Source: Blautia sp. Marseille-P3201T (GTDB taxonomy: Bacteria; Bacillota; Clostridia; Lachnospirales; Lachnospiraceae). Taken from it: DNA of 64,000 bases. The notes under the pieces are model-generated. The model saw only the letters and a program-made list of their open reading frames with translations, ran no database searches and was not told the origin of the DNA. Of the stretch, positions 9,876 through 64,000 are shown piece after piece. Made by a program: the position numbers and the translations under genes. The stretch covers positions 310,001-374,000 of the forward strand of contig NZ_LT635469.1 in NCBI RefSeq assembly GCF_900120295.1, in the 5' to 3' direction. The stretch's first letter is position 1; every line of letters starts with the position of its first letter.

Positions 9876-9894
9876 CACATATCGGTTTTTGTAT

Positions 9895-12166: not shown

Positions 12167-12183
12167 CTTGGGAGGACGGAGCA

Positions 12184-12321: not shown

Positions 12322-12325
12322 ACGT

Positions 12326-13441: not shown

Positions 13442-13453
13442 GGAGCGTGATAG

Positions 13454-14190: not shown

Positions 14191-14223
14191 AATACAAACT
14201 ATAACTTTCAGGAGGATAAGAAC

Positions 14224-15150: not shown

Positions 15151-15166
15151 TAGGAAGTGAAAACTT

Positions 15167-15583: not shown

Positions 15584-15596
15584 GGAGGAAAAAGAT

Positions 15597-15749: not shown

Positions 15750-15823
15750 AAAGGGGATTGACAGGTGCATTGGATACGGGACAGACCGTATACAAAAGAT
15801 AGAAAAAAGAAGATAGAAAATGG

Positions 15824-15853
15824 AAAGCAGGCTTGTGTGGCCTGCTTTTTTTG
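15824..15853 (+). terminator. Rho-independent terminator
   Basis: AAAGCAGGC (15824-15832), seven-base loop, GCCTGCTTT and a T run. It separates the partition operon from the adhesin gene and argues against the adhesin start at 15820, which lies upstream of the hairpin. Confidence 0.85.
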
Positions 15854-15879
15854 ACGAAAAAATGAAAAGGAGCAAAGCT

Positions 15880-32739: not shown

Positions 32740-33309
32740 GTGCGCCCAGAAGTCGCCAGCGCAATATAAATTGGCGACGTGGTATTTACAGGATACCGCC
32801 TTTAGCAAGCGGTAGGTAAAAGTATCAGGTGATGAAAAATCACAACCTATTATTCTACAACTTATCCGAGAGGGGAAACCCGAAGGGGAGTGTAGCATGT
32901 TGTTGTTCCAGTTGGAACGTAAATAGGAAAGGCGCTAATCCTATGCGTCAGAATATTTAAGAATAAAAATCAGTGTATGAGGTACAAAGCTAAACTGCCT
33001 AAACGATAGCCAGAGTGGGGGAAACTGTGCCCCGCATACGAAAAGGATTGAAACGTATGCTTTTCATGTTGGTTTCATTTCGCAGTTATGAAAGCAAGCG
33101 ATACTCATGAAAGAGCAACCGCAAGACAGCGGATAAATGGCGAAAGTCGGTGCCGACAACACTGAATGCTAATCCTGTATTTACTAACTGGGGATGACCT
33201 AAACCTGGTAACAGGCATGGTCACACAGCTCCCATAGTAGTCCGAGACGTTAATGACGTTCACATGGCGAAGGGGAGCAGCTTATCAGAAAATACTAAAA
33301 TGAAGGAAG

Positions 33310-35142
33310 GTGCGAGAGGCATTGAGAAATCCAACTGAGGTATTGAAAAATTTGATGGAAAAGTCAAAGAATGAAACTTACAGATTTCAGAGATTATACA
33401 GAAATCTGTACAATCCGGAGTTTTATTGGCTTGCGTATAAAAATATCTACGCAAATGATGGCAGTATGACTGCCGGAGCTGATGGAACAACGATTGATGG
33501 CATGGGTAACAAGAGAATTGAGAGGATTATTTTATCCTTAAAAGACCGAAGTTACCAACCTAAGCCTGCAAGAAGAGAATATATTGCAAAGAAAAACAGC
33601 AGTAAAAAACGTCCTCTGGGTATTCAGTCGGGGGATGATAAACTCGTGCAGGAAGTCGTTAAGATGATTTTGGAGAGTATTTATGAGCCTGTGTTCAGTA
33701 ATAAATCACATGGGTTCAGACCAAACAGAAGCTGTCAGACAGCACTGAAACAGATACAGAACACCTTTACTGGTGCGAACTGGTTTGTGGAAGGAGATAT
33801 ACACGCTTGTTTTGACAGTTTCGACCACCATGTAGTTATCGACCTCTTGAAAAAGAGGATTGATGACGAAGCGTTTATCCAGCTTATATGGAAATTCCTA
33901 AAAGCAGGATATATGGAACAATGGACATTCAACAGAACCTATAGCGGAGTGCCGCAGGGGTCGGGAGTCAGTCCAGTGCTGGCAAATATTTACCTTCATG
34001 AATTGGACAAATTTATGGAAAATTATGCAGAAAACTTCAATACAGAAGCTAAGAAGAAACATTTTTCTACTGCATATAAGTCCAGTGTCGGTAAGGCATA
34101 CAGATATAGGAAAAAGGGCAGAGAGATATGGGATAGTCTGTCTGACGAAGAAAAGAAAATCAGATGCAAAAATCTTAAGGAACTGGAAATGATTGAAAAA
34201 TCTACAACACCTTACGTCTATAACGACAGTAATTATAAAAGGGTGCAGTATACGAGATATGCGGATGATTTTATCATCGGGGTTATTGGTAGCAAAGCAG
34301 ACGCAGAAGCTATCAAGAAAGACGTGAAAATATTCCTGCAAAAAGCATTGAAATTAGAAATGTCAGACACTAAGACAAAGGTTACGCACACTGGAGACAG
34401 AGCAAGATTTCTAGGTTACGACATTACGGTATCAAGAGTGCAGACGCTACAGAAGGCTTCTAACGGAAGGGTTCAGAGATGTCAGACAGGAGTTGTTAAA
34501 CTGTACGTTCCACGCGAAAAATGGGTAGGTAAGTTAATTGAATACAAAGCAATGAAAATCAAAATCAACGAAAACGGAAAAGAGAGATTTGTAGCCCTTC
34601 ATAGGGGAAAACTGGTAAACCAGAGCGATATTGAAATTCTCGCAAGATACAATGCAGAAGTCCGTGGACTATATAATTATTACACCATAGCGAATGACTC
34701 CTTTAAAATAGGGAGATTTGCCAATGTAATGAAATACAGCATGTATAAAACATTTGCGTGCAAGTATAAGACGAATGTTCATGAGATTAAGCGGAGATAT
34801 TGCAGAAACGAATTATTTACAGTTGCGTATGAAACAAGGCAGGGAATGAAAACAACAACATTCTACAGGGATGGTTATAAACGGAAGGAATGTGCTACAA
34901 AGTTTGATAATGTAAGCGAGCTTCCGCAGTTTTCAAGATATGCCAAAACTAACACTCTCAAACAGAGAGTGGAACGTCATACTTGTGAATTATGCCAAAA
35001 AGACTGTAGAAATCTGGTAATACACCAAGTTAAGAAACTCAAAGATTTAAAGGGAAATACAGAGTGGGTATTACTCATGCGAAAAAGGAGACGGAAAACA
35101 CTCGTGGTATGCCCCGAATGCCATAATTTAATTCATTCGTAA
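33310..35142 (+). CDS. ltrA: Group II intron reverse transcriptase/maturase (LtrA-like)
   Basis: A 610-residue intron-encoded protein with all reverse-transcriptase blocks (KKRPLGIQSGDDKLVQEV, FVEGDIHACFDSFDHH, GVPQGSGVSPVLANIYLH) and catalytic YADD near residue 317. A maturase domain X follows, then an HNH endonuclease with zinc-type pairs (CELCQKDC and CPECHNLIH) at the C-terminus. It should support splicing and retrohoming. Starts at GTG 33310 behind GAAGGAAG; a TTG four codons later is an alternative. Confidence 0.95.
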   Translation: MREALRNPTEVLKNLMEKSKNETYRFQRLYRNLYNPEFYWLAYKNIYANDGSMTAGADGTTIDGMGNKRIERIILSLKDRSYQPKPARREYIAKKNSSKKRPLGIQSGDDKLVQEVVKMILESIYEPVFSNKSHGFRPNRSCQTALKQIQNTFTGANWFVEGDIHACFDSFDHHVVIDLLKKRIDDEAFIQLIWKFLKAGYMEQWTFNRTYSGVPQGSGVSPVLANIYLHELDKFMENYAENFNTEAKKKHFSTAYKSSVGKAYRYRKKGREIWDSLSDEEKKIRCKNLKELEMIEKSTTPYVYNDSNYKRVQYTRYADDFIIGVIGSKADAEAIKKDVKIFLQKALKLEMSDTKTKVTHTGDRARFLGYDITVSRVQTLQKASNGRVQRCQTGVVKLYVPREKWVGKLIEYKAMKIKINENGKERFVALHRGKLVNQSDIEILARYNAEVRGLYNYYTIANDSFKIGRFANVMKYSMYKTFACKYKTNVHEIKRRYCRNELFTVAYETRQGMKTTTFYRDGYKRKECATKFDNVSELPQFSRYAKTNTLKQRVERHTCELCQKDCRNLVIHQVKKLKDLKGNTEWVLLMRKRRRKTLVVCPECHNLIHS

Positions 35143-35249: not shown

Positions 35250-35987
35250 GATTCCCTGGTATATCTTGGTGGGAATGAACAGTCCACGCATAAGTATATC
35301 AGTGAGTCCCTGGGAAAAGGAACCATTGATAAAAAAAGCAGTGGGGAAACCAAAGGCCGGCAGGGGAGCAGTTCCCGGAATTATGATGTGCTGGGGCGTG
35401 AGCTTTTGACACCGGACGAAACCCGAAAGCTGGATAACTCAGAGTGTATTTTGTTAATCAGGGGTTGTGATCCCATTATTGATAAGAAATACAATACGTT
35501 TGCACACTCCAGATTTTCGGAAACAGAAGATGGCGGGGCAGCGCCTTATATCCATGACAGAATGGCTGCAAAAAAACAGGCGGTACAGATTTTAAACGAA
35601 GAATCCCTGGATTATTATAAGAAGAAAAAGGAACAGGGAGAAGATGTTCAGATTGTGGAACTGTCTTTTGATGAAATTTTTTCTTATGAGCCTATTCCTA
35701 AGAAGATTTTTTCGGAGGAAGAGCTGAAAGAGAACCAGAAGAAGAGAACGGTAGAGGAGGTGAGGCCGCCGAAGAAAACGGAAAAACCGGTACAGACAGA
35801 GGAAGAAAAACTTTCTGAATTATTGGAAAGCCATGTTTATAATGAGGAACAGTTGGGAGAAATCATGCTTGCCATTGGTGCTGGAATTTCGTATGATAAA
35901 ATCCTTCAAATGGCAGATACAAAAAACAGTGCTGAAAAGATGAAGGAAATCCGTAAAAAATTTACAAAAGAAACAGCCTCGGATTAA
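35250..35987 (+). CDS. Type IV coupling protein VirD4/TraG, 3' exon
   Basis: The C-terminal 245 codons of the T4CP, continuing in frame from 32739 once the intron is removed: DSLVYLGGNEQSTHKYISES, then RELLTPDETRKLDNSECILL, typical of VirD4/TraG ends. The last ~60 residues repeat the helical module seen in the 317-residue protein (LGEIMLAIGAGISYDKILQM, then SAEKMKEIRKKF), suggesting a shared docking element. Without splicing, only a truncated ATPase would be made. Confidence 0.85.
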   Translation, partial: DSLVYLGGNEQSTHKYISESLGKGTIDKKSSGETKGRQGSSSRNYDVLGRELLTPDETRKLDNSECILLIRGCDPIIDKKYNTFAHSRFSETEDGGAAPYIHDRMAAKKQAVQILNEESLDYYKKKKEQGEDVQIVELSFDEIFSYEPIPKKIFSEEELKENQKKRTVEEVRPPKKTEKPVQTEEEKLSELLESHVYNEEQLGEIMLAIGAGISYDKILQMADTKNSAEKMKEIRKKFTKETASD

Positions 35988-41785: not shown

Positions 41786-41919
41786 TAGGATTGACGTATC
41801 AATACTGGAACCATATAATGGGTACAAAGGAAAATTTGTTTATGGAAACAAACACATTGACGGAACATACAAAAGCTCTGTGATTAAAGTTTAAAGTGTG
41901 TTATACTAGGAGGAGAACA

Positions 41920-42516
41920 ATGGGATTAAAAGATGCGAAAGAAGGGAAACTTCTATATCATTTAACAGAGTTAAAAAACCTGGAATCGATCATTGACTTT
42001 GGACTTGTGCCAAGAAAGATTTTAAGGGAGAATACAGTAACGTTTGGAGATGTTGCAGATCCGGAAATTATACGTAAGAGAGAAGTTTTAGGATTGGACG
42101 GATATATTCCATTTCATTTTCACCCATATTCAGCTTTTGATGTGGCTGTGAAAAAAACGCATGTGGGCGAAGAAATGATTTATATTTGTATTACCAGAAG
42201 TTTGGCAAGACGCAATAATTTCCGTATTTTGCCTAAGCACCCATTGGCATTGGAAGAGTGCCAGCTATACGATTATGACGAAGGCTTTGAAATGATTGAC
42301 TGGGATATCCTTACCAGAGTAGGGCAGAATGACGAGGACGCCAGACAGATAAAGATGGCGGAATGCCTGAGTCCATTGGTTATTCCAGTTGATGCTTTCC
42401 AGTGTATCTATGTTTCATCGAAAGAAACTGAAAACAAAGTAGCAGATATGCTCAAACAGAAAGGTGTTATCTTTCCACCGCCATTTATTACGGTGATGCC
42501 CCAGTGGTTTGAGTAA
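41920..42516 (+). CDS. darT: DarT-like DNA ADP-ribosyltransferase toxin
   Basis: A 198-residue DUF4433 protein. NAD-binding H14 lies in LLYHLTELKNLESI, and catalytic glutamate in KMAECLSPLVIP near residue 147 matches the DarT AEF-type motif. DarT ADP-ribosylates thymidine in single-stranded DNA, blocking replication (established for the family). The start at ATG 41920 is behind AGGAGGAG. It is followed ten or so bases later by its macrodomain antitoxin. On an ICE the pair can enforce maintenance and defend against phage; note that transfer itself passes through single-stranded DNA. Confidence 0.9.
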   Translation: MGLKDAKEGKLLYHLTELKNLESIIDFGLVPRKILRENTVTFGDVADPEIIRKREVLGLDGYIPFHFHPYSAFDVAVKKTHVGEEMIYICITRSLARRNNFRILPKHPLALEECQLYDYDEGFEMIDWDILTRVGQNDEDARQIKMAECLSPLVIPVDAFQCIYVSSKETENKVADMLKQKGVIFPPPFITVMPQWFE

Positions 42517-42534
42517 CGAGAGGAGGTGGTTGTG

Positions 42535-43572
42535 TTGATTAAATACACAACTGGAGATATGTTTCAGTCTGGTGCAGAGTGTTTAGTTAATACAGTCAAC
42601 TGTGAGGGCTACATGGGAAAGGGAGTTGCGTATCAGTTCAAGCTGAAATTTCCAGAAAATAATAAAGCCTATATAAAAGCCTGCAAAGATAAAACACTGC
42701 ATGTTGGGACAATCCATACATTTGTAGAGAATGGTATTACGATTGTAAACTTTCCAACGAAAGATAAATGGCGTGAAAATTCTAAAATAAGCTATATAGA
42801 AACAGCGTTAGACGTTTTGGTAGAACGACTTCCGGGATTGCATGTGAAATCAGTAGCCATTCCACCGCTGGGGTGTGGAAATGGTGGTTTGGATTGGCAG
42901 ACAGTAAAAGAACTGATACAAAAGAAATTAGAACCAATCGCTGATAATTTTACATTTTTGATTTATGAGCCCCAGAGAAATTATGTACAGAGGGCAGCGG
43001 TTGCGCCTAAACTTACAGCGGCCAGTTTAGTTCTGATGAAAATAAAAATGGGGCTGAACCGTTGTACAAAACTTCGTCTGCAAAAAGCCGCATATTTTAT
43101 GAATTTGTATCTGGGAGAACCATATTTTTCGTTTCAGAAGTATAAATACGGTCCCTATGCTCATTCCATTGATATAGTTAGTAGAAATATCGGAGAGTAT
43201 CAGAGTTTTTATGGCTTAAAAGATACGGAATCAACGTATCAGTTAGCTTATCAGGTAATCTGTAGTGAAAAAACAACAAAGTTATTAAATCGTCTTATGC
43301 CTGCAATCGAAAGAGCGGTTGCTTATGTGAATGAGATAGAAAGTGATCATGAATTGGAAGGACTTGCAACGGTAACTTATTTAGTCCAGACTTTTTCAAG
43401 GATTGATGCCAGCCAGATTGTATCTGAATTTAAACAGTGGTCAGAGGATAAGGCAGCCCGTTTTTCAGAAGATGAAATAAAGAAATATATGGAATGCTTA
43501 GAGCAGACCGGTGTGATAGAACGGGATATTACAGGAAGCTATTGCATTTCAGAGTATCTTTCTTACAGATAA
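42535..43572 (+). CDS. darG: DarG-like macrodomain antitoxin
   Basis: A 345-residue protein. Residues 1-150 are a macrodomain (KYTTGDMFQSGAECLVNTVN, GYMGKGVAYQFK, IPPLGCGNGGLDW) that removes ADP-ribose from DNA. Residues ~160-345 form a second domain with KLRLQKAAYFMN and KYKYGPYAHSID, resembling the SocA/Panacea-type fold, which is expected to bind and neutralise DarT. Start ambiguous: TTG 42535 is eight bases from AGGAGG; GTG 42532 and GTG 42526 are in frame. Confidence 0.9.
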   Translation: MIKYTTGDMFQSGAECLVNTVNCEGYMGKGVAYQFKLKFPENNKAYIKACKDKTLHVGTIHTFVENGITIVNFPTKDKWRENSKISYIETALDVLVERLPGLHVKSVAIPPLGCGNGGLDWQTVKELIQKKLEPIADNFTFLIYEPQRNYVQRAAVAPKLTAASLVLMKIKMGLNRCTKLRLQKAAYFMNLYLGEPYFSFQKYKYGPYAHSIDIVSRNIGEYQSFYGLKDTESTYQLAYQVICSEKTTKLLNRLMPAIERAVAYVNEIESDHELEGLATVTYLVQTFSRIDASQIVSEFKQWSEDKAARFSEDEIKKYMECLEQTGVIERDITGSYCISEYLSYR

Positions 43573-45067: not shown

Positions 45068-45973
45068 TTGGATTTAGAAAAAACAGCGATAGAACGTATC
45101 CGCACTGCCAGCCAGATGTCCCTACAGCACTATGGGCTTCCTTTGGTCGTGACGGATAGTGGAGGAAAAGACAGCGCGGTATGCAGGGAACTGGTGCGGC
45201 GGTCCGGTGTGCCATTTGAACTGATGCACAACCTGACTACCGCAGATGCCCCACAAACGGTTTATTATGTAAGGGAGCAGTTTCAAAAAGCAGAACAGGC
45301 GGGGATTCCTTGTAGTATCAACAAACCTTATTATAAGGGGCAGCGGATAACCATGTGGAGCCTGATCCCCATGAAAATGATACCGCCAACCAGGACGGTA
45401 CGTTATTGTTGTGAGATTTTAAAAGAGAGTGGGGGGACGGGGCGTTTCATTCTCACAGGTGTCCGGTGGGCAGAAAGCCGGAAGCGGAGAAACAGCAGAG
45501 GGATTTATGAAAATTTTGTTCCAAACGGAAAAGAAAGGGCAGTCATTTTAAATAATGACAATGATGATACCAGGCGGCTTTTTGAAGTCTGCAGGTTAAG
45601 GAGCAAACATGTATGCAATCCCATTATTGACTGGAGTGATCAGGAAGTATGGGAATATATCCGGTCTGAAAAAATCTCTGTGAACCCTCTTTACGAAATG
45701 GGATTTCACCGGGTTGGCTGTGTAGGCTGTCCTATGGCAGGAAAACAAAGATACCGGGAGTTCCACATCTTCCCGACCTATGAGAGGGCTTACCGGCGGG
45801 CTTTTGCTAAAATGCTGGAGTTAAGGAAAGCTGCAGGAAGGCAGTGCAATTCCCACTTATGGTCAGATGTAGATGCTTTTTTCCGTTGGTGGATGGAAGA
45901 TCCTGGTATCCCCGGACAGTATGAATTGTCCTTTCATGAAGATACCAATGAGATTTATTATGACTATTTGTAG
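45068..45973 (+). CDS. PAPS-reductase-family protein
   Basis: A 301-residue protein with the PP-loop SGGKDSAVCRELV near residues 31-43 and conserved cysteines in RYCCEIL and CVGCPMAG. The fold is that of PAPS reductases and of DndC, the sulfur-handling enzyme of DNA phosphorothioation. No DndB, D or E genes are near, so DNA modification is only a possibility. Start uncertain: AAGGAGG at 45016 is followed by an open in-frame stretch (SFGHVKDIFPPETE) without ATG/GTG/TTG, so the first usable start is TTG 45068 or the true start has been altered. Confidence 0.8.
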   Translation: MDLEKTAIERIRTASQMSLQHYGLPLVVTDSGGKDSAVCRELVRRSGVPFELMHNLTTADAPQTVYYVREQFQKAEQAGIPCSINKPYYKGQRITMWSLIPMKMIPPTRTVRYCCEILKESGGTGRFILTGVRWAESRKRRNSRGIYENFVPNGKERAVILNNDNDDTRRLFEVCRLRSKHVCNPIIDWSDQEVWEYIRSEKISVNPLYEMGFHRVGCVGCPMAGKQRYREFHIFPTYERAYRRAFAKMLELRKAAGRQCNSHLWSDVDAFFRWWMEDPGIPGQYELSFHEDTNEIYYDYL

Positions 45974-56698: not shown

Positions 56699-57739
56699 TT
56701 ATTTAGGAGAGTCTGAGTTGATAAGCCAAACTTCAAAGGTACTGCCTACATGAAGGGTAGAAAACACGTGGATAAAGCCATATTGCCGGCTGATAATGTC
56801 TTGCGCCAGATGAAGCCCAACACCAACTCCCGGAAAGCTTTTGACAGAAGGAGAGCGGTAGAAGCGTTGGAAAAGTTTAGGGATTTCCGATTCTTTGATG
56901 CCGATACCGGAATCAGTGATTGCTATTTTGGTATAGTTTTCCAGGGTAAAAAGTTCTATGGAAATATGTCCATTTTCATTCGTGTATTTTACAGCATTAT
57001 CCAGGATATTATACAGCGCTTCGGAAGTCCATTTGGGATCATGATACGCCTTAAAGTCTTCTGAATAATTAAAAGTTATTTGAATGTTCTTCTGATCAGC
57101 CGCTAAAACGATATTTTCCAGAGCCATGAGAATGGTGTCACCAATCGTTTGATAACTTGGGGATAGTTTTATCACACCTGTTTCCAAACGGGATATTTTT
57201 ACAAGGGAAGAGATTAAAAATTCCAGCTTGTTCAGATGTGCAGTATTGGTGTGAAATAAGGTCTGTAGTTCCTGCGGTTTTGTAATGGCTTTTTCCATAG
57301 CGGACTCTGTCAGGCGCAGCGTGGTCATGGGGGTTTTTAACTGATGAGAAATATCAGAAATTAGCTGCTGGAGCTGTATCTTTTCGGCATTTACAGAATT
57401 TTTAGTGTTTTCCAATATACTGTACAGTCTTCCTAAATGATGGTTGATCTGTGATAGTAAAGTTTCGTCATACTTTTCATCAGGGGAAAAATAGGTTCCT
57501 TCAATCATACTGTCCAATGTTTTATGAAGTTCACGAGTAAACAAGGTGAGCTTGTGGAAAATCGTACAAAAGAGAATAAATACACAGATAAGCAGAAGGA
57601 AAGTGAAAATGGTAAAAAGCAAAAATACTTTAGGGTCTGACGTAAGTGTACGTAATATGATACAGGTTCCTGAAAATATCAACAGAAATAGCAGGGAAAC
57701 TATAATATATACTTTTTTTAAAGAAAATGTTTTTTTCAT
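56699..57739 (-). CDS. Histidine kinase of the cysteine-peptide cluster, BceS-like
   Basis: A 346-residue kinase with two membrane helices (about residues 9-30 and 37-62) joined by a loop of only a few residues, so it has almost no external sensor, as in BceS-type kinases. The HisKA site is ISDISHQLKTPMTTL, the N-box NILDNAVKYTNENG, and later GVGVGLHLAQDI. ATG 57739 begins two bases after the regulator stop; a GTG at 57748 would overlap it. It probably senses a peptide or the activity of the linked ABC transporter and phosphorylates the adjacent regulator. Confidence 0.92.
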   Translation of the reverse strand: MKKTFSLKKVYIIVSLLFLLIFSGTCIILRTLTSDPKVFLLFTIFTFLLLICVFILFCTIFHKLTLFTRELHKTLDSMIEGTYFSPDEKYDETLLSQINHHLGRLYSILENTKNSVNAEKIQLQQLISDISHQLKTPMTTLRLTESAMEKAITKPQELQTLFHTNTAHLNKLEFLISSLVKISRLETGVIKLSPSYQTIGDTILMALENIVLAADQKNIQITFNYSEDFKAYHDPKWTSEALYNILDNAVKYTNENGHISIELFTLENYTKIAITDSGIGIKESEIPKLFQRFYRSPSVKSFPGVGVGLHLAQDIISRQYGFIHVFSTLHVGSTFEVWLINSDSPK

Positions 57740-57740
57740 A

Positions 57741-58415
57741 TTAATCACCTATCCACATATATCCGGTTCCATAGATTGTTTTTATATAACGATGCCCGCT
57801 GGCTTCGATTTTCTTTCGGAGTCTGCTGATGGCAGTATTTAGGGAAGTATCACCTACAAAGTTTTCGGAGAAATCCCAGAGATGCTCAAGAAGCTGATCC
57901 CGTTTTAAAATATGCTTTTTATTCACAATAAAATATTGCAGAATACGGTACTCCAAAGGGGATAATTCCAGGGGAACTTTGTCCAGTGTCGCAGTCATTT
58001 GCGAGAAATTGATGCAGAGATTACCGTCTTCATATACGGTTTCCTTTTGTTTTTCTGTGATATATTTTGTTAAAACAGCTATTTTCTTTTGTAAGACGAC
58101 AGGTGAAAAAGGCTTTGTAATATAGTCATCAGCACCCAGGTCAAATCCTTTCACTATGTCATTTTCTAAATCATTTGCGGTTAAAAAGATAATACTGGCA
58201 GTTGATTTTTCTTTCAACTCTGAATATAATTCAAATCCATTTCCGTCAGGAAGGTTAATATCCAAAATCAGAAGAATGTAATGATACTGTTTTAAATATT
58301 CAAAGGCTTCTTTTGCATTATATGCAGAGTCAACAGTATAGCCCGCTGTCCGCAAGTTATAAGCCAGGGTATTATTTAAGGAGAAATCATCTTCAATAAT
58401 TAAGATACGGTGCAT
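57741..58415 (-). CDS. Response regulator of the cysteine-peptide cluster, OmpR family
   Basis: A 224-residue regulator: acidic pair D9-D10, phospho-acceptor D52 in LLILDINLPDG, lysine in DDYITKPF, and a winged-helix domain ending in IKTIYGTGYMW. The start at 58415 (MHRILIIEDD) follows GGAG; a longer frame upstream lacks support. It faces the phospholipase promoter, and the GTAA direct repeats with 11 bp spacing there are what an OmpR-type dimer binds. I predict it controls the three promoters at 58562, 59935 and 63835. Confidence 0.92.
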   Translation of the reverse strand: MHRILIIEDDFSLNNTLAYNLRTAGYTVDSAYNAKEAFEYLKQYHYILLILDINLPDGNGFELYSELKEKSTASIIFLTANDLENDIVKGFDLGADDYITKPFSPVVLQKKIAVLTKYITEKQKETVYEDGNLCINFSQMTATLDKVPLELSPLEYRILQYFIVNKKHILKRDQLLEHLWDFSENFVGDTSLNTAISRLRKKIEASGHRYIKTIYGTGYMWIGD

Positions 58416-58561: not shown

Positions 58562-58593
58562 GTAATAATTTGGTAAGAATCGGCGGATATACT
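58562..58593 (+). promoter_or_regulatory. Regulated promoter A (before phospholipase)
   Basis: GTAATAAT (58562-58569) and GTAAGAAT (58573-58580) are direct repeats 11 bp apart, then exactly 7 bp, then -10 TATACT (58588-58593). They occupy the -35 region, as in activator-dependent promoters bound by OmpR-family dimers. The same layout recurs at 59935 and 63835. Confidence 0.75.
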
Positions 58594-58618: not shown

Positions 58619-59461
58619 ATGAGGTGTAAAAAACTAGGGGTACTTTTGGCAATGGTTTTGGTAGGCGTTTCCGCAGCACCGGCATGGTCGGTATCGGCGG
58701 CAGAACCTCAGGGCTTACCGCAGCAGGTGCTGGATATTTCCAATGGTTCAGATGAAATTTACGGACCAGGTGCACCGATTGAGCATGTGGAAAATCCTGA
58801 TGAGCGGTTTAGCAGTGGCGGGGTAGATCATACACATCAGTATATCGTATCGAATGCCTTGAAGATTTTAAATAATGATAAAGGTTCCAGCGTCTTAAAT
58901 ACAAAAGCTGCTATGATATGTGAATATACAGACTGGCCAGATGTATTAGGAAATGAAACCGATTACGGAACGTTTGCAGGACATTTCTATGATCCGGATA
59001 CCGGAAAAAACTGGATGGGACAGAAAAATCCTACTGCACGAATCAGAGCAGAAACCTATTATCAAAGTGCAGTTGCAGCATATAAAGATGGATATACAGA
59101 TAAGGCAATGGAGTACATAGGAAAAGGAACACATTATGTATCAGATTTGAATGAGCCACATCATGCGTCTAACCTGACAGCAGTAAACAGTAATCATTCA
59201 GATTTTGAAAAATATGTGGACAAACATCGTACCGAATATACCATAGCAGGGAACAGCTTTGGCGTAGATGTTTATAGTAGTGCTGAGAATACAGCGGTAG
59301 GAGATATGCTTTATAGCGCTGCAAAAGATGCTAAAGCACTGGCTGGAATGGCACAGAATAAAGATACCTATGACTCAGCCGGAAATCAGTCAGTCCAAAA
59401 TGCAATAAAGACAGTAAGTAAGTACATTTACAAATTTGGTAAAGAAGTAGGTATTTATTAA
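58619..59461 (+). CDS. Secreted zinc-dependent phospholipase C-like enzyme
   Basis: A 280-residue exported protein. The signal peptide (basic start, LLAMVLVGVSAAPAW, cleavage near VSAA) is followed by a zinc phospholipase C domain. By spacing to the Bacillus cereus enzyme, zinc ligands are H73, D108, H122, H172, D176, H182, H193 and E197, in GHFYDPDTGKNW and THYVSDLNEPHHASN. The N-terminal tryptophan that normally completes a zinc site is not found at the expected position. It lacks the C-terminal membrane-binding domain of alpha-toxin. Strong AAAAGGAGG start. It is the first gene of the unit with peptides 1 and 2, so it is co-regulated with them. It may act on membrane lipids of competitors or host. 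Confidence 0.88.
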   Translation: MRCKKLGVLLAMVLVGVSAAPAWSVSAAEPQGLPQQVLDISNGSDEIYGPGAPIEHVENPDERFSSGGVDHTHQYIVSNALKILNNDKGSSVLNTKAAMICEYTDWPDVLGNETDYGTFAGHFYDPDTGKNWMGQKNPTARIRAETYYQSAVAAYKDGYTDKAMEYIGKGTHYVSDLNEPHHASNLTAVNSNHSDFEKYVDKHRTEYTIAGNSFGVDVYSSAENTAVGDMLYSAAKDAKALAGMAQNKDTYDSAGNQSVQNAIKTVSKYIYKFGKEVGIY

Positions 59462-59525: not shown

Positions 59526-59660
59526 ATGAAAGAACTGGAAAAGAAAATGCAGAACGAAAACTTTGATGTAGAAGTACAGTATTGTGATCCTGATAATTGC
59601 AAATATGATTGTATGGTTTCGGAAAATCATTGCAATTCGCATATTTCAACTTTGATGTAG
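59526..59660 (+). CDS. Cysteine peptide 1 (44 residues)
   Basis: ATG 59526 follows AAAGGAGGAAGGG. Charged N-terminus MKELEKKMQ, then FDVEVQYCDPDNC; cysteines at 20, 25, 29 and 36; ends in STLM. One of five paralogues sharing FDVE(V/T)QYCDPxxC and the C-x4-C-x3-C-x6/7-C pattern. No signal peptide, no double-glycine site, few Ser/Thr before the cysteines. In this copy the residue before the third cysteine pair is KYD where most paralogues have HD. Co-transcribed with the phospholipase. Function unknown. Confidence 0.8.
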   Translation: MKELEKKMQNENFDVEVQYCDPDNCKYDCMVSENHCNSHISTLM

Positions 59661-59702
59661 AATCAATTTGAAAGGCTGAATATATGTGAAGGGGAACAAG
59701 AG

Positions 59703-59837
59703 ATGAAAGAATTAGAAAAGAAAATGCAAAATGAGAATTTTGATGTAGAAGTACAGTATTGTGATCCTGACGATTGCACTCATGACTGTCTGATTGCACC
59801 AGATCATTGTAATACACATATTACACCTTATTGGTAA
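59703..59837 (+). CDS. Cysteine peptide 2 (44 residues)
   Basis: ATG 59703 follows AAGGGGAACAAG. Same leader as peptide 1 (MKELEKKMQNENFDVEVQYC), cysteines at 20, 25, 29 and 36, histidine between cysteines (CTHDC) and in CNTHIT, ending in Trp. Over 30 N-terminal residues it is nearly identical to peptide 1, also at the DNA level, so it is a recent tandem duplicate that differs mainly after residue 25. That pattern (constant front, variable back) is typical of precursor peptides. Confidence 0.82.
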   Translation: MKELEKKMQNENFDVEVQYCDPDDCTHDCLIAPDHCNTHITPYW

Positions 59838-59877
59838 AATCCAATTAAAGTAGTTTCTGAATTTTATCAGTAAAATG

Positions 59878-59919
59878 AAGGGGACATTTTCTCTATTATG
59901 AGTTAAATGTCCCCTTTTT
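59878..59919 (+). terminator. Terminator after peptide 2
   Basis: AAGGGGACATTT (59878-59889) pairs perfectly with AAATGTCCCCTT (59905-59916), followed by a T run. It closes the phospholipase-peptide unit. Confidence 0.9.
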
Positions 59920-59934
59920 ATTTTTTTTGTTTAG

Positions 59935-59966
59935 GTAATAATTCGGTAAGAATTAGGGGGTATGAT
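59935..59966 (+). promoter_or_regulatory. Regulated promoter B (before ABC transporter)
   Basis: GTAATAAT (59935-59942), GTAAGAAT (59946-59953) starting 11 bp later, 7 bp, then -10 TATGAT (59961-59966). Same layout as promoters A and C. Confidence 0.75.
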
Positions 59967-59993
59967 AAATTAAAACAAGGAGAGGTGAGAAAC

Positions 59994-60656
59994 ATGGAAT
60001 TGGTTAAAACATCAGATTTGAAAAAGTATTATCGTACCGGAGAGATTTGTGTGAAGGCATTGGATCAGGTCAATCTTTCTGTTGAAGAAGGTGAGTTTAT
60101 TGCTGTTGTTGGGCCGTCAGGCTGCGGTAAGACAACATTACTGAATATGCTGGGCGGATTGGATAATCCGACAGAGGGAACGGTTCTGATACATGGAAAA
60201 GATATAACAAAAATGAAATCGGAAGAACTGACGGTATATCGAAGAAAACATATCGGATTTGTATTTCAGAATTATAATCTTCTTCAAACACTGAATGTAA
60301 AAAGCAATATATTGTTACCACTTTATTTAGGGAACAGTAAAATTGATGAAGCATATTTTGAAGAGATTGTAGAAATTCTGGGTATTAAAAATAAGTTGAA
60401 AAATTTACCGAACACCTTATCGGGCGGACAGCAGCAGAGAGTTGCCATTGCCAGGGCAATGATTACGAAACCAGATATTGTCTTAGCAGATGAGCCGACA
60501 GGAAACCTGGATAGTGAATCCAGTGAAGAGGTTCTTAGGCTGCTCAGGGAGTCAGGGGAACGTTACAATCAGACGATTATCATGATTACCCATAGTAGAG
60601 AAATCGCAGAAACTGCATCAAGGATTATAAGAATGAGAGATGGTAAAATCGTATGA
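59994..60656 (+). CDS. ABC transporter ATPase, MacB/LolD type
   Basis: A 220-residue ATPase: Walker A GPSGCGKTT, Q-loop FVFQNYNLL, signature LSGGQQQRVAIARA, Walker B DIVLADEPTGNLDSES, H-loop MITHS. This is the short ATPase that pairs with FtsX-type permeases in peptide export, resistance or envelope remodelling. ATG 59994 follows GGAGAGGTGAG. The stop overlaps the permease start (ATGA). A second copy begins at 63891 with one base difference over the visible 110 bases. Confidence 0.93.
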   Translation: MELVKTSDLKKYYRTGEICVKALDQVNLSVEEGEFIAVVGPSGCGKTTLLNMLGGLDNPTEGTVLIHGKDITKMKSEELTVYRRKHIGFVFQNYNLLQTLNVKSNILLPLYLGNSKIDEAYFEEIVEILGIKNKLKNLPNTLSGGQQQRVAIARAMITKPDIVLADEPTGNLDSESSEEVLRLLRESGERYNQTIIMITHSREIAETASRIIRMRDGKIV

Positions 60657-63244
60657 GTAATGAAAAGAAAATAATCAAAGAAATGGTACAGGGTAATCTG
60701 AAGGTGAATAGAAAGAGAAATCTTCTTCTTGTATTGGCGATTACGTTAACTACCATTTTATTTACCTCAGTATTGGAAATTGGATTTGGCGGTATGCAAT
60801 CTATTCAGGAAACACAGTTAAGACTTTCGGGATTAAAAGCAGATGCAGAACTTCGATACTTGAATAAAGAACAGTTTCAGGAAGTTCAAAATTCGGAGTT
60901 GTTTGAAAGCGTGGGAGGAAGGATTCCAATCGCATTTTTGGAAGGAGAAACAAAGCGACCTATTGAAATAGACTATCTAGATAAAGGTGGTATGGAAGCT
61001 TATTATCTTTCTTTGAAAGAGGGGAAGATGCCAGAAGATGAGAAAGAAGTGCTTTTATCTGAGCAAGCATTGGAAGAACTGGGAATAAAAAAGGAAGTAG
61101 GAAGTTATGTTCCGGTGTCTTTTACATTAAGAGGTCAAGAATATAATTTTGATATGCGATTGGCAGGTTGGTATACAGGAAATCCTAAGGCTGATTTTTT
61201 AATTGTATCAGAAACATTTTTAGAACACAATCCTGAAGTGACAAAGAATACTTATGATGATGATAAAGAAGTGTCCGGAACATATTATGCTAGCGTTTGC
61301 ATGAAGAACACAAAAAATATCGAGCAAAACCTTAAAGAATATGTGAAAAGCCTTGGAGGACAAACTGAGGATTCTAATGGAAGAGAATATATTCACATAG
61401 CAGTGAACTATGTATTATATTCAGAAGATGGAAATACGGGATTGATTCTTTCGATATTCTTTTTTGCAGCGTTATTTATTTTATGTGGCTACCTATTGAT
61501 TTATAATATTTTTGATATAGGTGTTATGCAGGATATTCAGCAATTTGGAATAATGAAAACAATTGGAATGACAGGTAAACAAATCAAGAGATTAATGCGA
61601 AGACAGATGCTTTTTTTATCTCTTATCGGTATTCCGATTGGCTTGCTTCTGGGATATGGGCTAGGTGTCCTTTTGCTACCAGTCATTCTGAAAAACTGGG
61701 AATATAGTGAGGAAGAACTTACCATTGTACAATCAGTGCATCCAGCTATTTTTGCTTTAACAATTATTTTTGTATTAATTACAGTATTCTTAAGCATGAG
61801 AAGACCTTCTCAAAAAGCGGCTAAGTATTCTGCAATTGAAACAGCAAAATATACAGAGATAAAGAAAAAAACCGCTGAAAAAGATATTCGTTCTATTAGA
61901 AACATAGCAAAGAGTAATTTGCAAAGGAATAGGAAAAGAACGACTTTAGTGTTTACTTCACTTATATTAAGTATTATCTTTGTTAACTCTTTATGGATTA
62001 TTTCGAATAGTTTTGATGAAGAAAAATATATTAATGCACGAATGCGGAGGGACTATTTGATTGCATCTACAGACACTTTAAATCCGAGTGTTGGATATAT
62101 TAGATCTTCGGCGGCATTGAACGAGGAGGTCATGGAACAAGTAGAGAAAAATTCTATAGTCCAAAATGGTACTAGATTATATAAAAATACAGTAGATAAT
62201 TCTGACATAAGTTTTGAATGGGGCAATGAAGGAATTGAAATAAAAGAATATATGCCCAATGTAGAAGTTGATGGCGTAATTACAAATGAAGCAATAACAA
62301 ATTATGGACAGGTAACATTGTCAAAGGATGAAAAAGCATTATGTAATGTGTGTGGTATTTCTGAGAATTTTGTTGATAAAATGGAAATTTTAGATGGGGA
62401 AAGCAATATTGCCACCATTAAAGAAAAGCTAAAAAGTGGGAACTATATTTTGGCTGCTGTTTCTAAAAATACAAAGGGTGGTTATAGTAGTCAGGCATTA
62501 GAGAATTTACCAGATATTGGTGAAATAGTGACGATTTATAAGAATGGAAAACCACTGAAGAAAGCAGAAGTGCTATCACAAATTTTGGTAGTGGATTCAG
62601 AACAGATATCAGGAGATAGTTTAACTGGTGATAATACTATTTTAGGACCTTGGTTTTATTTAGGAGAAGATTTATTTAAAGAATTGTATGGAGAAGGCAA
62701 TTTAGTGAATTATTCTTTTGACGCAGATGAGAAAGATGCGCCTGCTGTACGAAGAATGTTGAACCAGATTTCACAAGAATTTTCAGATGTTGGATTTGAA
62801 ACTACAGAGCAAAGGCACTCTGAAATCGAAAATTATAAAGCACTGGTCAGAATACTGTGTGTTTTAATCGGAGGAATTTTAGGTGTGATTGGAATTGTAA
62901 ATCTTGTGAATATTATTTTTACAAATCTAATTGTGCGAAACCGAGAATTAGCAACATTTAGAAGCATAGGTGCAACAAAGAAACAGTTGCGTGAACTGAT
63001 TATAAGGGAGAGTATAGGATATGTTTTCTATGCTGCAGTTGGTGGCTTTATACTTGCAACACTAATCGGCATGACAGCAGTTAGGGGGATTTGTTCTTCT
63101 GTTTGGCTTTTTACTTTTCAATTTACATTACTTCCAGCAGCTATTGTCATAGTGTTGTACTTAATAATAGCTGTTATTGCTTCTGAGGCAGGGATTTATT
63201 TTTGGGAAAAAGGAAGTATTACAGAACGCCTCAGAAATTTGTAG
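60653..63244 (+). CDS. FtsX-family ABC permease, 863 residues
   Basis: A membrane protein with two FtsX halves: helix near residues 22-45, large external domain (~50-255), three helices (~258-385), then again a helix (~430-450), external domain (~455-720) and three helices (~728-855). The motif NRELATFRSIGATKKQLREL in the last loop is the FtsX coupling helix, and its counterpart FGIMKTIGMTGKQIKRLM is in the first half. Such permeases do not pump through a simple channel; they expel or release peptides or lipids using the external domains. It is followed directly by peptides 3-5, so transporter and peptides are made together. Confidence 0.9.
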   Translation: MSNEKKIIKEMVQGNLKVNRKRNLLLVLAITLTTILFTSVLEIGFGGMQSIQETQLRLSGLKADAELRYLNKEQFQEVQNSELFESVGGRIPIAFLEGETKRPIEIDYLDKGGMEAYYLSLKEGKMPEDEKEVLLSEQALEELGIKKEVGSYVPVSFTLRGQEYNFDMRLAGWYTGNPKADFLIVSETFLEHNPEVTKNTYDDDKEVSGTYYASVCMKNTKNIEQNLKEYVKSLGGQTEDSNGREYIHIAVNYVLYSEDGNTGLILSIFFFAALFILCGYLLIYNIFDIGVMQDIQQFGIMKTIGMTGKQIKRLMRRQMLFLSLIGIPIGLLLGYGLGVLLLPVILKNWEYSEEELTIVQSVHPAIFALTIIFVLITVFLSMRRPSQKAAKYSAIETAKYTEIKKKTAEKDIRSIRNIAKSNLQRNRKRTTLVFTSLILSIIFVNSLWIISNSFDEEKYINARMRRDYLIASTDTLNPSVGYIRSSAALNEEVMEQVEKNSIVQNGTRLYKNTVDNSDISFEWGNEGIEIKEYMPNVEVDGVITNEAITNYGQVTLSKDEKALCNVCGISENFVDKMEILDGESNIATIKEKLKSGNYILAAVSKNTKGGYSSQALENLPDIGEIVTIYKNGKPLKKAEVLSQILVVDSEQISGDSLTGDNTILGPWFYLGEDLFKELYGEGNLVNYSFDADEKDAPAVRRMLNQISQEFSDVGFETTEQRHSEIENYKALVRILCVLIGGILGVIGIVNLVNIIFTNLIVRNRELATFRSIGATKKQLRELIIRESIGYVFYAAVGGFILATLIGMTAVRGICSSVWLFTFQFTLLPAAIVIVLYLIIAVIASEAGIYFWEKGSITERLRNL

Positions 63245-63309
63245 ATAGGATGATTTACAGCATAAAAATGCTGATAAACCAGAAATATAAGTGAAAGGAG
63301 GCGGATAAT

Positions 63310-63444
63310 ATGTTAGAACTTGAAAAGAGAATGCAGGAAGAGCCTTTTGATGTAGAGGTTCAGTATTGTGATCCAGATGATTGTGCTCATGATTGTTTAA
63401 CAGCACCTGGACACTGTAACACACATTTTACTTCAATGTTATAA
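63310..63444 (+). CDS. Cysteine peptide 3 (44 residues)
   Basis: ATG 63310 behind GAAAGGAGGCGG. MLELEKRMQEEPFDVEVQYC, then cysteines 25, 29 and 36 with CAHDC and CNTH, ending in TSML. Closest to peptide 2 in the core and to peptide 1 at the end. Lies 65 bases after the permease stop in the same unit. Confidence 0.82.
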   Translation: MLELEKRMQEEPFDVEVQYCDPDDCAHDCLTAPGHCNTHFTSML

Positions 63445-63458
63445 GGAGGAACGTAACC

Positions 63459-63596
63459 ATGAAAGAATTAGAAAAGAAAATTCAGGAATTAGGATTCGAC
63501 GTAGAAACCCAGTATTGCGATCCGAGTGATTGCTATCATGACTGCTACGGTGAAGGCGTTAACAATTGTGATGCACATTTTACAGAAATTTGGTAA
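63459..63596 (+). CDS. Cysteine peptide 4 (45 residues)
   Basis: ATG 63459 behind AAGGAGGAACG, 14 bases after peptide 3. MKELEKKIQELGFDVETQYC, cysteines at 20, 25, 29 and 37 with CYHDC and a GEGVNNCDAHF segment one residue longer than in peptides 1-3, ending in Trp. With peptide 5 it forms a second subfamily. Confidence 0.82.
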   Translation: MKELEKKIQELGFDVETQYCDPSDCYHDCYGEGVNNCDAHFTEIW

Positions 63597-63613
63597 GACT
63601 GGAGGAACACTAT

Positions 63614-63751
63614 ATGGAAAAAATGGAGAAAAAAATCCAGGAAGTTGCATTTGATGTCGAAGTTCAGTATTGTGATCCAAGTGATTGTTATCACGATTGC
63701 AAACATGAAGGTGTCAATAACTGTGATGCCGATATGACAACAATCTGGTAA
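63614..63751 (+). CDS. Cysteine peptide 5 (45 residues)
   Basis: ATG 63614 behind GGAGGAACAC. MEKMEKKIQEVAFDVEVQYC, cysteines 20, 25, 29 and 37, CYHDC, then KHEGVNNCDAD and a C-terminal Trp. The histidine after the last cysteine in the other copies is Asp here. Sister of peptide 4. Confidence 0.82.
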   Translation: MEKMEKKIQEVAFDVEVQYCDPSDCYHDCKHEGVNNCDADMTTIW

Positions 63752-63772
63752 AAATTGACAAATTACAGAAAG

Positions 63773-63804
63773 TGGTTCTTGTTTTTAATGCAAGAACCAT
63801 TTTC
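63773..63804 (+). terminator. Terminator after peptide 5
   Basis: TGGTTCTTG (63773-63781) pairs with CAAGAACCA (63791-63799), then TTTT. It closes the transporter-peptide unit. Confidence 0.85.
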
Positions 63805-63834
63805 TAATTTTAGGATTAGATTTATTTTATGCCT

Positions 63835-63866
63835 GTAATAATTCAGTAAGGATTGTAGATTATATT
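63835..63866 (+). promoter_or_regulatory. Regulated promoter C (before second ABC ATPase)
   Basis: GTAATAAT (63835-63842), GTAAGGAT (63846-63853) 11 bp later, 7 bp, -10 TATATT (63861-63866). Same layout as A and B but with one changed base in the second repeat, while the flanks differ. Confidence 0.72.
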
Positions 63867-63890: not shown

Positions 63891-64000
63891 ATGGAATTGG
63901 TTAAAACATCAGATTTGAAAAAGTATTATCGTACCGGAGAGATTTGTGTGAAGGCATTGGATCAGGTCAATCTTTCTGTTGAAGAAGGCGAGTTTATTGC
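63891..64000 (+). CDS. Second ABC transporter ATPase (3' partial)
   Basis: The gene begins at ATG 63891 behind GAGGTGAG and runs off the window. Its 110 visible bases match the gene at 59994 except for one silent change (GGT to GGC), so the two are a recent duplication or kept alike by gene conversion. It implies a further ABC-permease-peptide unit beyond 64000. Confidence 0.85.
   Translation, partial: MELVKTSDLKKYYRTGEICVKALDQVNLSVEEGEFI

What the first reader, a model, noticed from the sequence alone, without database searches (positions are those of the whole stretch)
59526..63751. Undescribed family of five cysteine peptides with dedicated transporter and sensor
Five short genes, each with a strong ribosome site, encode 44-45 residue peptides with a constant front (xELEKK, then FDVE(V/T)QYCDP) and a variable back. 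Cysteines follow C-x4-C-x3-C-x6/7-C, and four of five have His-Asp between the second and third. They have no signal peptide or double-glycine site and almost no Ser/Thr for lanthionines. They alternate with a MacB/FtsX transporter and sit beside a BceS-like kinase/regulator and a secreted phospholipase. Candidate roles are modified or disulfide bacteriocin, signalling peptide, or metal-binding peptide. I recognise no known family.
Basis: partly seen in the sequence, partly recalled or inferred. Interest (0 to 1): 0.93.

Follow-up and report, generated by a model that had tools for sequence, protein, structure and literature searches.

The report
Ten-peptide radical SAM RiPP cluster
A gut bacterium carries, on what looks like a transferable DNA element, an undescribed set of small cysteine-rich peptide genes together with the enzymes that probably crosslink, trim, export and control them, most likely a cocktail of antibacterial peptides whose chemistry can now be tested.

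Summary
The genome holds ten, not five, such peptides. Just right of base 64000 lie maturases: a PapB-like radical SAM enzyme, a subtilisin-like protease without signal peptide, a split ABC exporter, a second radical SAM enzyme and a thioredoxin-like protein. This is a RiPP system. A 17-bp element occurs exactly four times in the 2.94-Mb genome, once before each transcription unit. Seventeen further peptides lie in five other genomes or records, including Paenibacillus. All 27 have a leader ending [DE]-[VIAM]-x-x-Q, then [YI]-C-x-P-x-[DEN]-C-x-x-D-C and a fourth Cys. The leader end resembles the published cutting motif of ElxP, a cytoplasmic lantibiotic leader protease. A sister family with unlike cores keeps the leader end and CxxDC. 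Best reading: Cys-to-Asp thioethers, as PapB makes, plus disulfides; cleavage after Gln; export; antibacterial use with self-sensing. Chemistry and activity are inferred. None of the ten reaches a Pfam or NCBIfam cut-off. New variant of a known kind.

The parts
56699..57748 (-). Histidine kinase, 349 aa, two predicted TM helices 9 residues apart (BceS-like build by recall)
   Evidence: 68-98% identical homologues in L011, L038/L012 and L013, 41% in Paenibacillus L014
57741..58484 (-). OmpR/PhoB-type response regulator
   Evidence: PhoB-like models, below cut-off
58562..58578 (+). Operator-like element GTAATAATTTGGTAAGA (GTAA repeat, 11-bp step) before the phospholipase unit, TATACT 9 nt after it
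   Evidence: 4 of 4 genome-wide matches lie in this cluster, reversed-pattern control 0; window shuffles 0
58619..59461 (+). Zinc-dependent phospholipase C-like protein, 280 aa, N-terminal hydrophobic stretch, first gene of the unit with peptides 1-2
   Evidence: PF00882 E 3.7e-12; PDB phospholipase C 2.5e-14; 47% identical homologue in the Paenibacillus cluster
59526..59660 (+). Precursor peptide 1 (leader to Q18, core YCDPDNCKYDC...)
59703..59837 (+). Precursor peptide 2
59877..59917 (+). Hairpin followed by T-run, terminator-like, ends unit 1
   Evidence: -22.8 kcal/mol, z -6.9 (not listed by the simple scan)
59935..59951 (+). Operator-like element before transporter unit 1
59994..60656 (+). 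MacB/LolD-type ABC ATPase 1
   Evidence: LolD 223.8 of 307.75 bits; below each cut-off shown
60653..63244 (+). FtsX-type permease 1, 863 aa, 8 predicted TM helices
   Evidence: PF02687, TM count
63310..63444 (+). Precursor peptide 3
63459..63596 (+). Precursor peptide 4
63614..63751 (+). Precursor peptide 5
63767..63805 (+). Terminator-like hairpin ending unit 2
   Evidence: -22 kcal/mol, z -6.9
63835..63851 (+). Operator-like element before transporter unit 2
63891..64000 (+). Start of MacB-type ATPase 2; the cluster goes on outside the window to about G000:C9:388658: FtsX2, peptides 6-8, 4th operator (C9:377794), radical SAM 1, S8 protease, ABC exporter TM and ATPase, radical SAM 2, thioredoxin-like, MacB3/FtsX3, peptides 9-10, ATPase, kinase-like fragment and regulator-like gene (last two from sequence alone)

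Best explanation
A probably mobile RiPP (ribosomally made, modified peptide) cluster that makes a cocktail of up to ten radical-SAM-crosslinked peptides. Inferred order: (1) the short-loop kinase and its regulator switch on four transcription units through the GTAA-repeat element. (2) Ten precursors are made, each a ~15-18-residue leader with a conserved F-D-V-E-V-Q-like end and a 26-27-residue acidic core with four Cys. (3) The two radical SAM/SPASM enzymes crosslink the core; the PapB-like one most likely joins Cys thiols to Asp/Glu carbons in the C-x3-[D/E] and/or C-x-x-D-C stretch. (4) The S8 protease, which has no signal peptide, cuts after the invariant Gln. (5) The split ABC exporter, in which no peptidase domain was found, secretes the core. 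(6) The secreted thioredoxin-like protein pairs the remaining Cys as disulfides. (7) The MacB/FtsX pairs give self-protection and, with the kinase, sensing. Most likely use: inhibiting competing Gram-positive gut bacteria. Shown here: gene content, conservation, motifs, the element's exclusivity. Inferred: every chemical step, the cut site, export, regulation and activity. My odds: RiPP 0.93; cut after Gln 0.75; at least one Cys-Asp/Glu thioether 0.5; antibacterial use 0.55.
For: Radical SAM 1: best NCBIfam model is PapB, 211.5 bits over 3-315, next 139.9; best solved relative by profile 5wgg, E 1.2e-47 (CteB by recall). Radical SAM 2: Radical_SAM and SPASM domains above cut-off, profile hits 5wgg and SkfB. 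S8: PF00082; nearest model QhpE; D30, H71 and S218 invariant in 5 of 5 (triad by recall); the start with a GGAGGG site is L009 10880, 9 residues before that Asp, so no signal peptide fits. Whole maturation set beside the peptides in 4 of 6 peptide-bearing loci: own genome, G808, G810 Paenibacillus, G811. Peptides: a Cys-only pattern, which does not ask for the leader, gave 17 peptides outside the own genome (four unrelated minus-strand ORFs dropped); with the ten own ones, 27 of 27 have D/E at -5, V/I/A/M at -4, Q at -1, then [Y/I]-C-x-P-x-[D24 E2 N1]-C-x-x-D-C. PMC10885120 (passages): the cytoplasmic S8 protease ElxP recognises (D/E-5)(L/V-4)X2(Q-1). Sister family: three peptides read LDV[KQ]GQ-GC-x-x-DC beside radical SAM 1 and 2, with S8 in G363 and G332. 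PMC9413430 (abstract and passages): PapB links Cys to Asp/Glu in CX3D/E and accepts spacings 0-6. The element: 4 of 4 in the cluster, genome-wide, repeated in L011, L012, L013 and L039.
Against: Radical SAM 1 is below the PapB cut-off (211.5 against 340), so another chemistry is possible. One of 27 peptides has Asn where C-x3-D/E needs an acid. C-x-x-D is not the native PapB spacing. At -4, 10 of 27 have I, A or M and not the L/V of the ElxP motif. In G809 three peptides of this family lie beside PLC and transporters, but no orthologous radical SAM 1 and no S8 was found in that assembly, so S8 is also missing for its sister peptide; in G807 the cluster runs into a contig end inside the first ATPase and neither enzyme is found elsewhere. 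No recognition domain (RRE) was demonstrated: the N-terminal profile had no significant PDB hit and the model was poor (pLDDT 50). Outside the motif the two peptide families do not match significantly (hhalign probability 1.7%, E 0.029), and the third sister peptide was found with a profile of the other two, so its motif is not independent. The thioredoxin-like protein of Paenibacillus gave no tblastn match to ours. The cores are acidic (net -3 to -6), unlike many antibacterial peptides. No activity data.
Confidence: 0.62

Rival explanations
1. Disulfide-only peptides: the radical SAM enzymes act on something else and the secreted thioredoxin-like protein makes two disulfides in each core.
For: Four Cys in 27 of 27 peptides; thioredoxin-like protein with CPFC and a signal-like start in the cluster (the start by eye, the TM scan did not flag it), and one with CYYC in Paenibacillus; weak PedC/BrcD match, 18.6 bits.
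Against: Both radical SAM enzymes sit in one run with peptides, S8 and exporter genes in own genome, G808, G810 and G811, and the conserved P-x-[DEN] and xxD between Cys are not needed for disulfides. A sister family with three Cys keeps the same two radical SAM enzymes.
Confidence: 0.12
2. Sactipeptide-type or other radical chemistry: thioethers to alpha carbons, or Tyr/Trp/Asp C-C crosslinks, or two different modifications by the two enzymes.
For: SPASM maturases of many chemistries score on both enzymes; conserved Tyr just before Cys1 (26 of 27) and C-terminal Trp in 12 of 27.
Against: The best model for radical SAM 1 is the ranthipeptide enzyme PapB by a wide margin (211.5 against 139.9 bits), and Cys-acid spacings are among the best conserved core features.
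Confidence: 0.25
3. Signalling peptides: the mature peptides are autoinducers sensed through FtsX transporter and kinase, without killing.
For: Short-loop kinase and regulator next to the cluster, shared element before each unit.
Against: Ten divergent cores with fast-changing ends (pN/pS 0.68) suit a cocktail more than one signal; three transporter copies suit immunity; a LanM lantibiotic-type synthetase lies about 9 kb further on.
Confidence: 0.25
4. Metal- or calcium-binding peptides (acidic Cys/His/Asp cores), for example scavengers or Ca-dependent membrane binders working with the phospholipase.
For: Cores are Asp-rich with net charge -3 to -6; the phospholipase gene is kept in 4 of 6 loci, including Paenibacillus, with a C-terminal remnant in a fifth.
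Against: No direct test; metal binding alone would not need a leader protease and two radical SAM enzymes.
Confidence: 0.15

Closest known systems
PapA/PapB ranthipeptide (NF047865)
   Same: Nearest model for radical SAM 1; substrate motif Cys-x3-Asp/Glu (PMC9413430, passages) is present in 26 of 27 peptides.
   Different: Score below cut-off; one such motif per core instead of six; extra invariant C-x-x-D-C; second radical SAM enzyme, S8 protease, thioredoxin-like protein and FtsX transporters.
AC3_0185 family rSAM-modified Cys-rich RiPP (TIGR04118) and CXXX-repeat maturase (TIGR04115; that they belong together is recall)
   Same: The only NCBIfam peptide model touched: one of 29 peptides, over 5-40 of 45 residues; TIGR04115 is the second-best model for radical SAM 1.
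   Different: 15.9 of 35 bits and E 0.0097 for one peptide, nothing for the other 28; a six-frame search of the genome with TIGR04118 does not find the peptides; radical SAM 1 has 139.9 of 350 bits.
SCIFF/CteB ranthipeptides (TIGR03973/TIGR03974)
   Same: SPASM maturase, best solved relative by sequence; Clostridia.
   Different: No peptide matches the SCIFF model (29 scanned); radical SAM 1 scores 138 bits against a cut-off of 425.
Cys-rich peptide maturase CcpM system of clostridia (TIGR04068)
   Same: Radical SAM enzyme for Cys-rich peptides.
   Different: 131.8 bits against a cut-off of 500; no match to its peptide families (names recalled).
Sporulation killing factor (Skf) system
   Same: By recall: radical SAM thioether plus disulfide with a thioredoxin-like partner and ABC exporter; SkfB is a profile hit of radical SAM 2.
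   Different: Different peptide, two radical SAM enzymes, subtilisin-type protease.
ElxP of epilancin 15X
   Same: Cytoplasmic S8 leader protease with (D/E)(L/V)xxQ motif (PMC10885120, passages).
   Different: Serves a class I lantibiotic. ElxP itself was not compared by sequence.
QhpD/QhpE (quinohemoprotein amine dehydrogenase maturation)
   Same: QhpE is the best model for the S8 protease (100.2 bits); QhpD makes Cys-Asp/Glu thioethers (recalled).
   Different: S8 below the QhpE cut-off (165); the substrate there is an enzyme subunit, not small peptides.

Membership tests
RiPP (general) | Short precursor with conserved leader and variable core beside a peptide-modifying enzyme and exporter | tested here: met
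RiPP (general) | Modified product shown | not testable with these tools
   needs mass spectrometry
PapB ranthipeptide | Maturase above the NCBIfam NF047865 cut-off | tested here: not met
   211.5 bits against 340
PapB ranthipeptide | Cys-x3-Asp/Glu in the core | tested here: met
   26 of 27 peptides (24 D, 2 E, 1 N)
PapB ranthipeptide | Thioether to a non-alpha carbon of Asp/Glu | not testable with these tools
   needs MS/MS or NMR
AC3_0185 family (TIGR04118) | Peptide above cut-off | tested here: not met
   1 of 29 peptides matches at 15.9 of 35 bits, E 0.0097; genome search with the model finds none of the ten, and at E<=1 it also rings in 5 of 14 control genomes
SCIFF ranthipeptide | Peptide matches the SCIFF model; maturase above TIGR03974 cut-off | tested here: not met
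   no hit in 29 peptides; 138 of 425 bits
CcpM system (TIGR04068) | Maturase above cut-off | tested here: not met
   131.8 of 500 bits
QhpE protease | Score above NF049966 cut-off | tested here: not met
   100.2 of 165 bits
ElxP-like leader protease | S8 protease without signal peptide, triad kept | tested here: met
   PF00082; D30, H71, S218 in 5 of 5; RBS-supported start 9 residues before D30. The TM scan shows none but is weak, as it also missed the thioredoxin-like start
ElxP-like leader protease | Leader ends (D/E)(L/V)xxQ | tested here: met
   27 of 27 have D/E at -5 and Q at -1; -4 is V 17, I 8, A 1, M 1, so exactly L/V in 17 of 27
ElxP-like leader protease | Cleavage after Gln | not testable with these tools
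   in vitro assay needed
Bce-type sensing/resistance module | Short-loop kinase next to an FtsX-type transporter | tested here: met
   2 TM with 9-residue loop; FtsX permeases with 8-9 predicted TM. BceB has ten TM by recall, so the transporter is not a plain BceB
PedC/BrcD bacteriocin disulfide isomerase | Score above cut-off | tested here: not met
   18.6 of 120 bits
RRE-bearing maturase | PqqD-like N-terminal domain in radical SAM 2 | tested here: inconclusive
   model shows three strands then three helices, but pLDDT is 29-44 over residues 1-90; no significant PDB profile hit

The most novel reading that the evidence does not exclude
A separate RiPP class in which two cooperating SPASM radical SAM enzymes recognise a minimal C-x-x-D-C signature behind a D-V-x-x-Q leader end and build nested Cys-Asp thioethers, finished by extracellular disulfides, to give an acidic, horizontally moving ten-peptide cocktail that works together with a co-regulated phospholipase C. 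At least two peptide families with unlike cores (three or four Cys) share this machinery in Lachnospiraceae, one of them reaching Paenibacillus.
Probability: 0.3. Interest if true: 0.78.

Novelty: new variant of a known kind. Interest (0 to 1): 0.6.

Why it matters
No peptide of the 29 scanned reaches a curated NCBIfam cut-off, and a 2026 survey of rumen bacteriocins lists TIGR03973, the SCIFF model by recall, as its rule for ranthipeptides (PMC13289728, passages), so systems like this are probably missed by such mining. If the chemistry is as proposed, the cluster gives a natural library of ten cores for one enzyme pair, a cytoplasmic protease with a readable cut motif, and a sharply bounded regulon in gut bacteria. 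The prediction is testable: each core mass minus 2 Da per link, cut after one named Gln.

Tried and rejected
Rejected: lanthipeptide (no lanthipeptide synthetase among the cluster genes; the LanM gene lies about 9 kb beyond; but cores do hold 1-4 Ser/Thr, so this rests on gene content); plain disulfide bacteriocin (see rivals); phage or plasmid origin of the peptides (no tblastn match of peptide 2 in 72,556 plasmid and 50,697 phage records at E<=1; S8 none in phages at 1e-10); viperin-type defence (PADLOC pVip hits of up to 68 bits, which I read as the shared radical SAM core).

Led nowhere: structure model of radical SAM 2 (pLDDT 50), so no fold search was run; RRE by PDB profile; thioredoxin-like protein in PDB (no hit at E<=0.1); the simple terminator scan did not list the hairpins that folding shows. 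G149 has an S8 and ABC but no radical SAM match in the 18 kb looked at. G140 has a GCSNDC peptide beside MacB/FtsX without S8 or radical SAM match in 16 kb, and lacks the Gln motif.

Counts that depend on how I searched: the regular expression requires F/L, D/E, Q, Y/I-C-D/N-P, so those positions are fixed by construction there; the Cys-only pattern does not require them and gave the same 17 peptides outside the own genome. The script chose a too early start for one peptide (L009 9545; 9587 was used elsewhere). Own-genome peptides in L010 and repeats between L015, L016 and L039 were dropped as duplicates. The genus, family and phylum tallies include the own genome.

Not in print: no description of these peptides was seen in the listings; only open-access papers are held. 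The 2011 paper on radical SAM systems and target peptides that PMC9413430 cites is not held.

Full report
Check of the observation. Spacing C-x4-C-x3-C-x6/7-C holds in all five and His-Asp in four of five. The window is G000:C9:310001-374000. Reading on to the right shows that the window cuts the cluster in the middle: the genome has ten such peptides, in four sets that follow the phospholipase gene (2), FtsX1 (3), FtsX2 (3) and FtsX3 (2). A profile of the ten finds these ten and no other in the genome. Synonymous change is near saturation (pS 0.61-0.73) while the leader and first half of the core are under strong constraint (pN/pS 0.24 and 0.30) and the last nine codons much less (0.68). These are diversifying protein-coding genes.

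What lies beside them. In L009 (window position = L009 position + 57999): radical SAM 1 9853-10887; S8 protease, listed 10820-11923 but with the ribosome-site-supported ATG at 10880; ABC transmembrane part 11871-12821; ABC ATPase 12818-13453; radical SAM 2 13469-14674; thioredoxin-like protein with a signal-like start (by eye) and CPFC 14662-15381; MacB3 15445-16137; FtsX3 16155-18758; peptides 9 and 10; another ATPase 19197-19853; then (L010) a kinase-like fragment and a regulator-like gene, from sequence alone. Family scans: radical SAM 1 is nearest to PapB (211.5 bits, cut-off 340), next to the CXXX-repeat maturase (139.9 of 350); S8 nearest to QhpE (100.2 of 165); the thioredoxin-like protein only weakly like PedC/BrcD (18.6 of 120). 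Pfam confirms Radical_SAM in both enzymes, SPASM in radical SAM 2, Peptidase_S8, ABC_membrane, Zn_dep_PLPC and FtsX; the SPASM match of radical SAM 1 (17.4 of 21.5) and the thioredoxin matches are below cut-off. No peptidase domain was listed for the exporter, so leader removal must come from elsewhere; S8 is the candidate.

Known families. All ten genome peptides, the 17 outside and two sister peptides were scanned against NCBIfam: none reaches a cut-off, and one (L009:9433) matches TIGR04118, AC3_0185 family rSAM-modified Cys-rich RiPP, at 15.9 of 35 bits, E 0.0097. A six-frame search of the genome with that model finds none of the ten, one unrelated place at E 0.28, and rings in 5 of 14 control genomes at E<=1. 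It may be a very distant relative or chance. Pfam gives only sub-cut-off matches for the ten, PHROGs none.

Regulation. GTAATAATTNNGTAAGR occurs four times in 2,944,302 bases, all on the + strand, once before each unit (phospholipase, ABC1, ABC2, radical SAM 1); the reversed pattern occurs 0 times, and window shuffles give 0. A scan allowing two changes finds the element also in L011 (2), L012 (1), L013 (1) and L039 (3), and not in L010, L040, L014 or L036. It is a GTAA repeat with an 11-bp step, followed in the units by a TATACT-like hexamer, as known for OmpR-type activators (recall); that the neighbouring regulator binds it is inference. Each of the four peptide sets is followed by a strong hairpin (z -5.9 to -6.9).

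Relatives. The one scan of genome contigs gave 4 loci: Faecalimonas umbilicata DSM 103426 (L011), two Lachnospiraceae MAGs (L012, L013) and Paenibacillus tritici (L014); viral contigs gave two loci in one 68.7-kb record, G811, which also holds a LanM-sized gene and serine-recombinase-like genes (by eye). In sampled genomes the peptides are rare: 1 of 20 in the genus, 1 of 397 in the family, 2 of 398 in the phylum, where the second is a partial hit at E 9.5e-4 in a 381-residue frame; in each the first is the own genome. The S8 protein at E<=1e-20: 1 of 398 phylum, 3 of 378 family, own genome included. The full set of radical SAM 1, radical SAM 2, S8 and split ABC lies with the peptides in four of six loci: own genome, G808, G810 (Paenibacillus; identities 45, 38, 36 and 23-38%) and G811. 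G807 (F. umbilicata) ends at a contig edge inside the first ATPase and shows no orthologous radical SAM 1 or S8 elsewhere; G809 has three peptides, PLC, kinase and transporters but no orthologous radical SAM 1 and no S8 in its assembly. Orthologous kinase and regulator lie in five of six loci, all but G811, which has only 33-37% relatives far off. The phospholipase is seen in four of six, 47% identical in Paenibacillus next to the S8 gene, with a 16-residue C-terminal remnant in G811 and none seen in G808, so it probably belongs to the system.

Sister family. Following S8 homologues at 25-29% identity led to G363, where both radical SAM enzymes, S8, ABC and MacB/FtsX surround a 57-aa peptide. 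A second lies in G809 on another contig, beside MacB/FtsX, both radical SAM enzymes and a regulator, and a third, found with a profile of the first two, in G332 beside both radical SAM enzymes, S8 and ABC. By that profile 3 of 387 family genomes match, one of them (G140) weakly. Their cores have three Cys and do not align significantly with the window family (hhalign probability 1.7%, E 0.029, though in the register of the motif). Yet all three read LDV[KQ]GQ-GC-x-x-DC. What the two families share is therefore D-V-x-x-Q just before the first Cys and the C-x-x-D-C signature, together with the two radical SAM enzymes. The G363 peptide was seen in a plain list of small ORFs before the motif was scanned for.

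Mechanism. PMC10885120 (passages) reports that ElxP, a cytoplasmic S8 protease for epilancin 15X, recognises (D/E-5)(L/V-4)X2(Q-1). FDVEVQ-YC and LDVKGQ-GC fit, with I, A or M at -4 in 10 of 27 of the window family. I therefore put the cut after Gln18 (peptide 1 numbering), leaving acidic cores of 26-27 aa; masses are. PMC9413430 (abstract and passages) reports that PapB joins Cys to Asp C-beta or Glu C-gamma in CX3D/E, accepts spacings of 0-6, gave no product with Cys and Asp transposed, and accepts nested links. In our peptides Cys1-x3-[D/E] is kept in 26 of 27 and Cys2-x2-Asp in 27 of 27. That is my basis for Cys-Asp thioethers; it is a prediction, at about even odds, since the enzyme is below the PapB cut-off. 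A thioredoxin-like protein that looks secreted suggests that remaining Cys form disulfides, as in the Skf system (recalled). The kinase has two helices 9 residues apart, the build of kinases that sense through an FtsX transporter (recalled for BceS), so autoregulation by the product or by envelope stress is likely.

Setting. Left of 58 kb the window carries conjugation genes: coupling protein and TraG-type ATPase domains, an NlpC/P60 cell-wall hydrolase, and a 2295-aa protein read by me as the helicase/methylase of conjugative elements (the last from sequence alone). The cluster is thus probably cargo of an integrative conjugative element, which fits its rarity and patchy spread; element ends were not determined.

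Verdict. The finding is real and better than described: not a bare peptide family but a complete, apparently undescribed radical SAM RiPP system with ten substrates. It works like a ranthipeptide/Skf-type system but fails the numerical membership tests tried (PapB, TIGR04118, SCIFF, CcpM, QhpE), so I file it as a new variant of a known kind. No modification, cleavage or activity has been shown.

Noticed in passing
window 31396-32769, 33310-35142, 35388-35987: A VirD4/TraG-type coupling-protein gene appears split by a group II intron with reverse transcriptase, maturase and HNH domains (the third stretch by eye). Only described.
   Followed up: partly
window 41896-43572: DarT/DarG-like toxin-antitoxin pair among the conjugation genes: DarG above its NCBIfam cut-off (274 of 250 bits), DarT-like below (65.6 of 150).
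   Followed up: partly
window 45068-45973: PAPS-reductase-domain protein (PF01507), weakly like DndC (24.9 bits), between conjugation genes.
   Followed up: no
L010 13959-16925 (G000:C9:397958-400924): LanM lanthipeptide synthetase (TIGR03897, 570.5 of 304 bits) about 9 kb right of the cluster; a LanM-sized gene also follows the cluster in record G811 (not scanned).
   Followed up: no
L010 5462-9815: Phosphopantetheinyl-transferase-like gene on the minus strand (below cut-off) followed by genes that read like acetyl-CoA carboxylase subunits (from sequence), an unexpected neighbour for a RiPP island.
   Followed up: no
L060 7171-7368 (-): A 65-aa peptide with GCSNDC beside MacB/FtsX in a genome of the same family without S8 or radical SAM match in 16 kb, lacking the Gln motif: perhaps a third branch.
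   Followed up: partly
plasmid records NZ_CP124296.1, NZ_CP124282.1, NZ_CP045225.1: Homologues of radical SAM 2 (30-35% identity) on 3 of 72,556 plasmids, two of Paraclostridium sordellii and one of Clostridioides difficile; neighbourhood not looked at.
   Followed up: no
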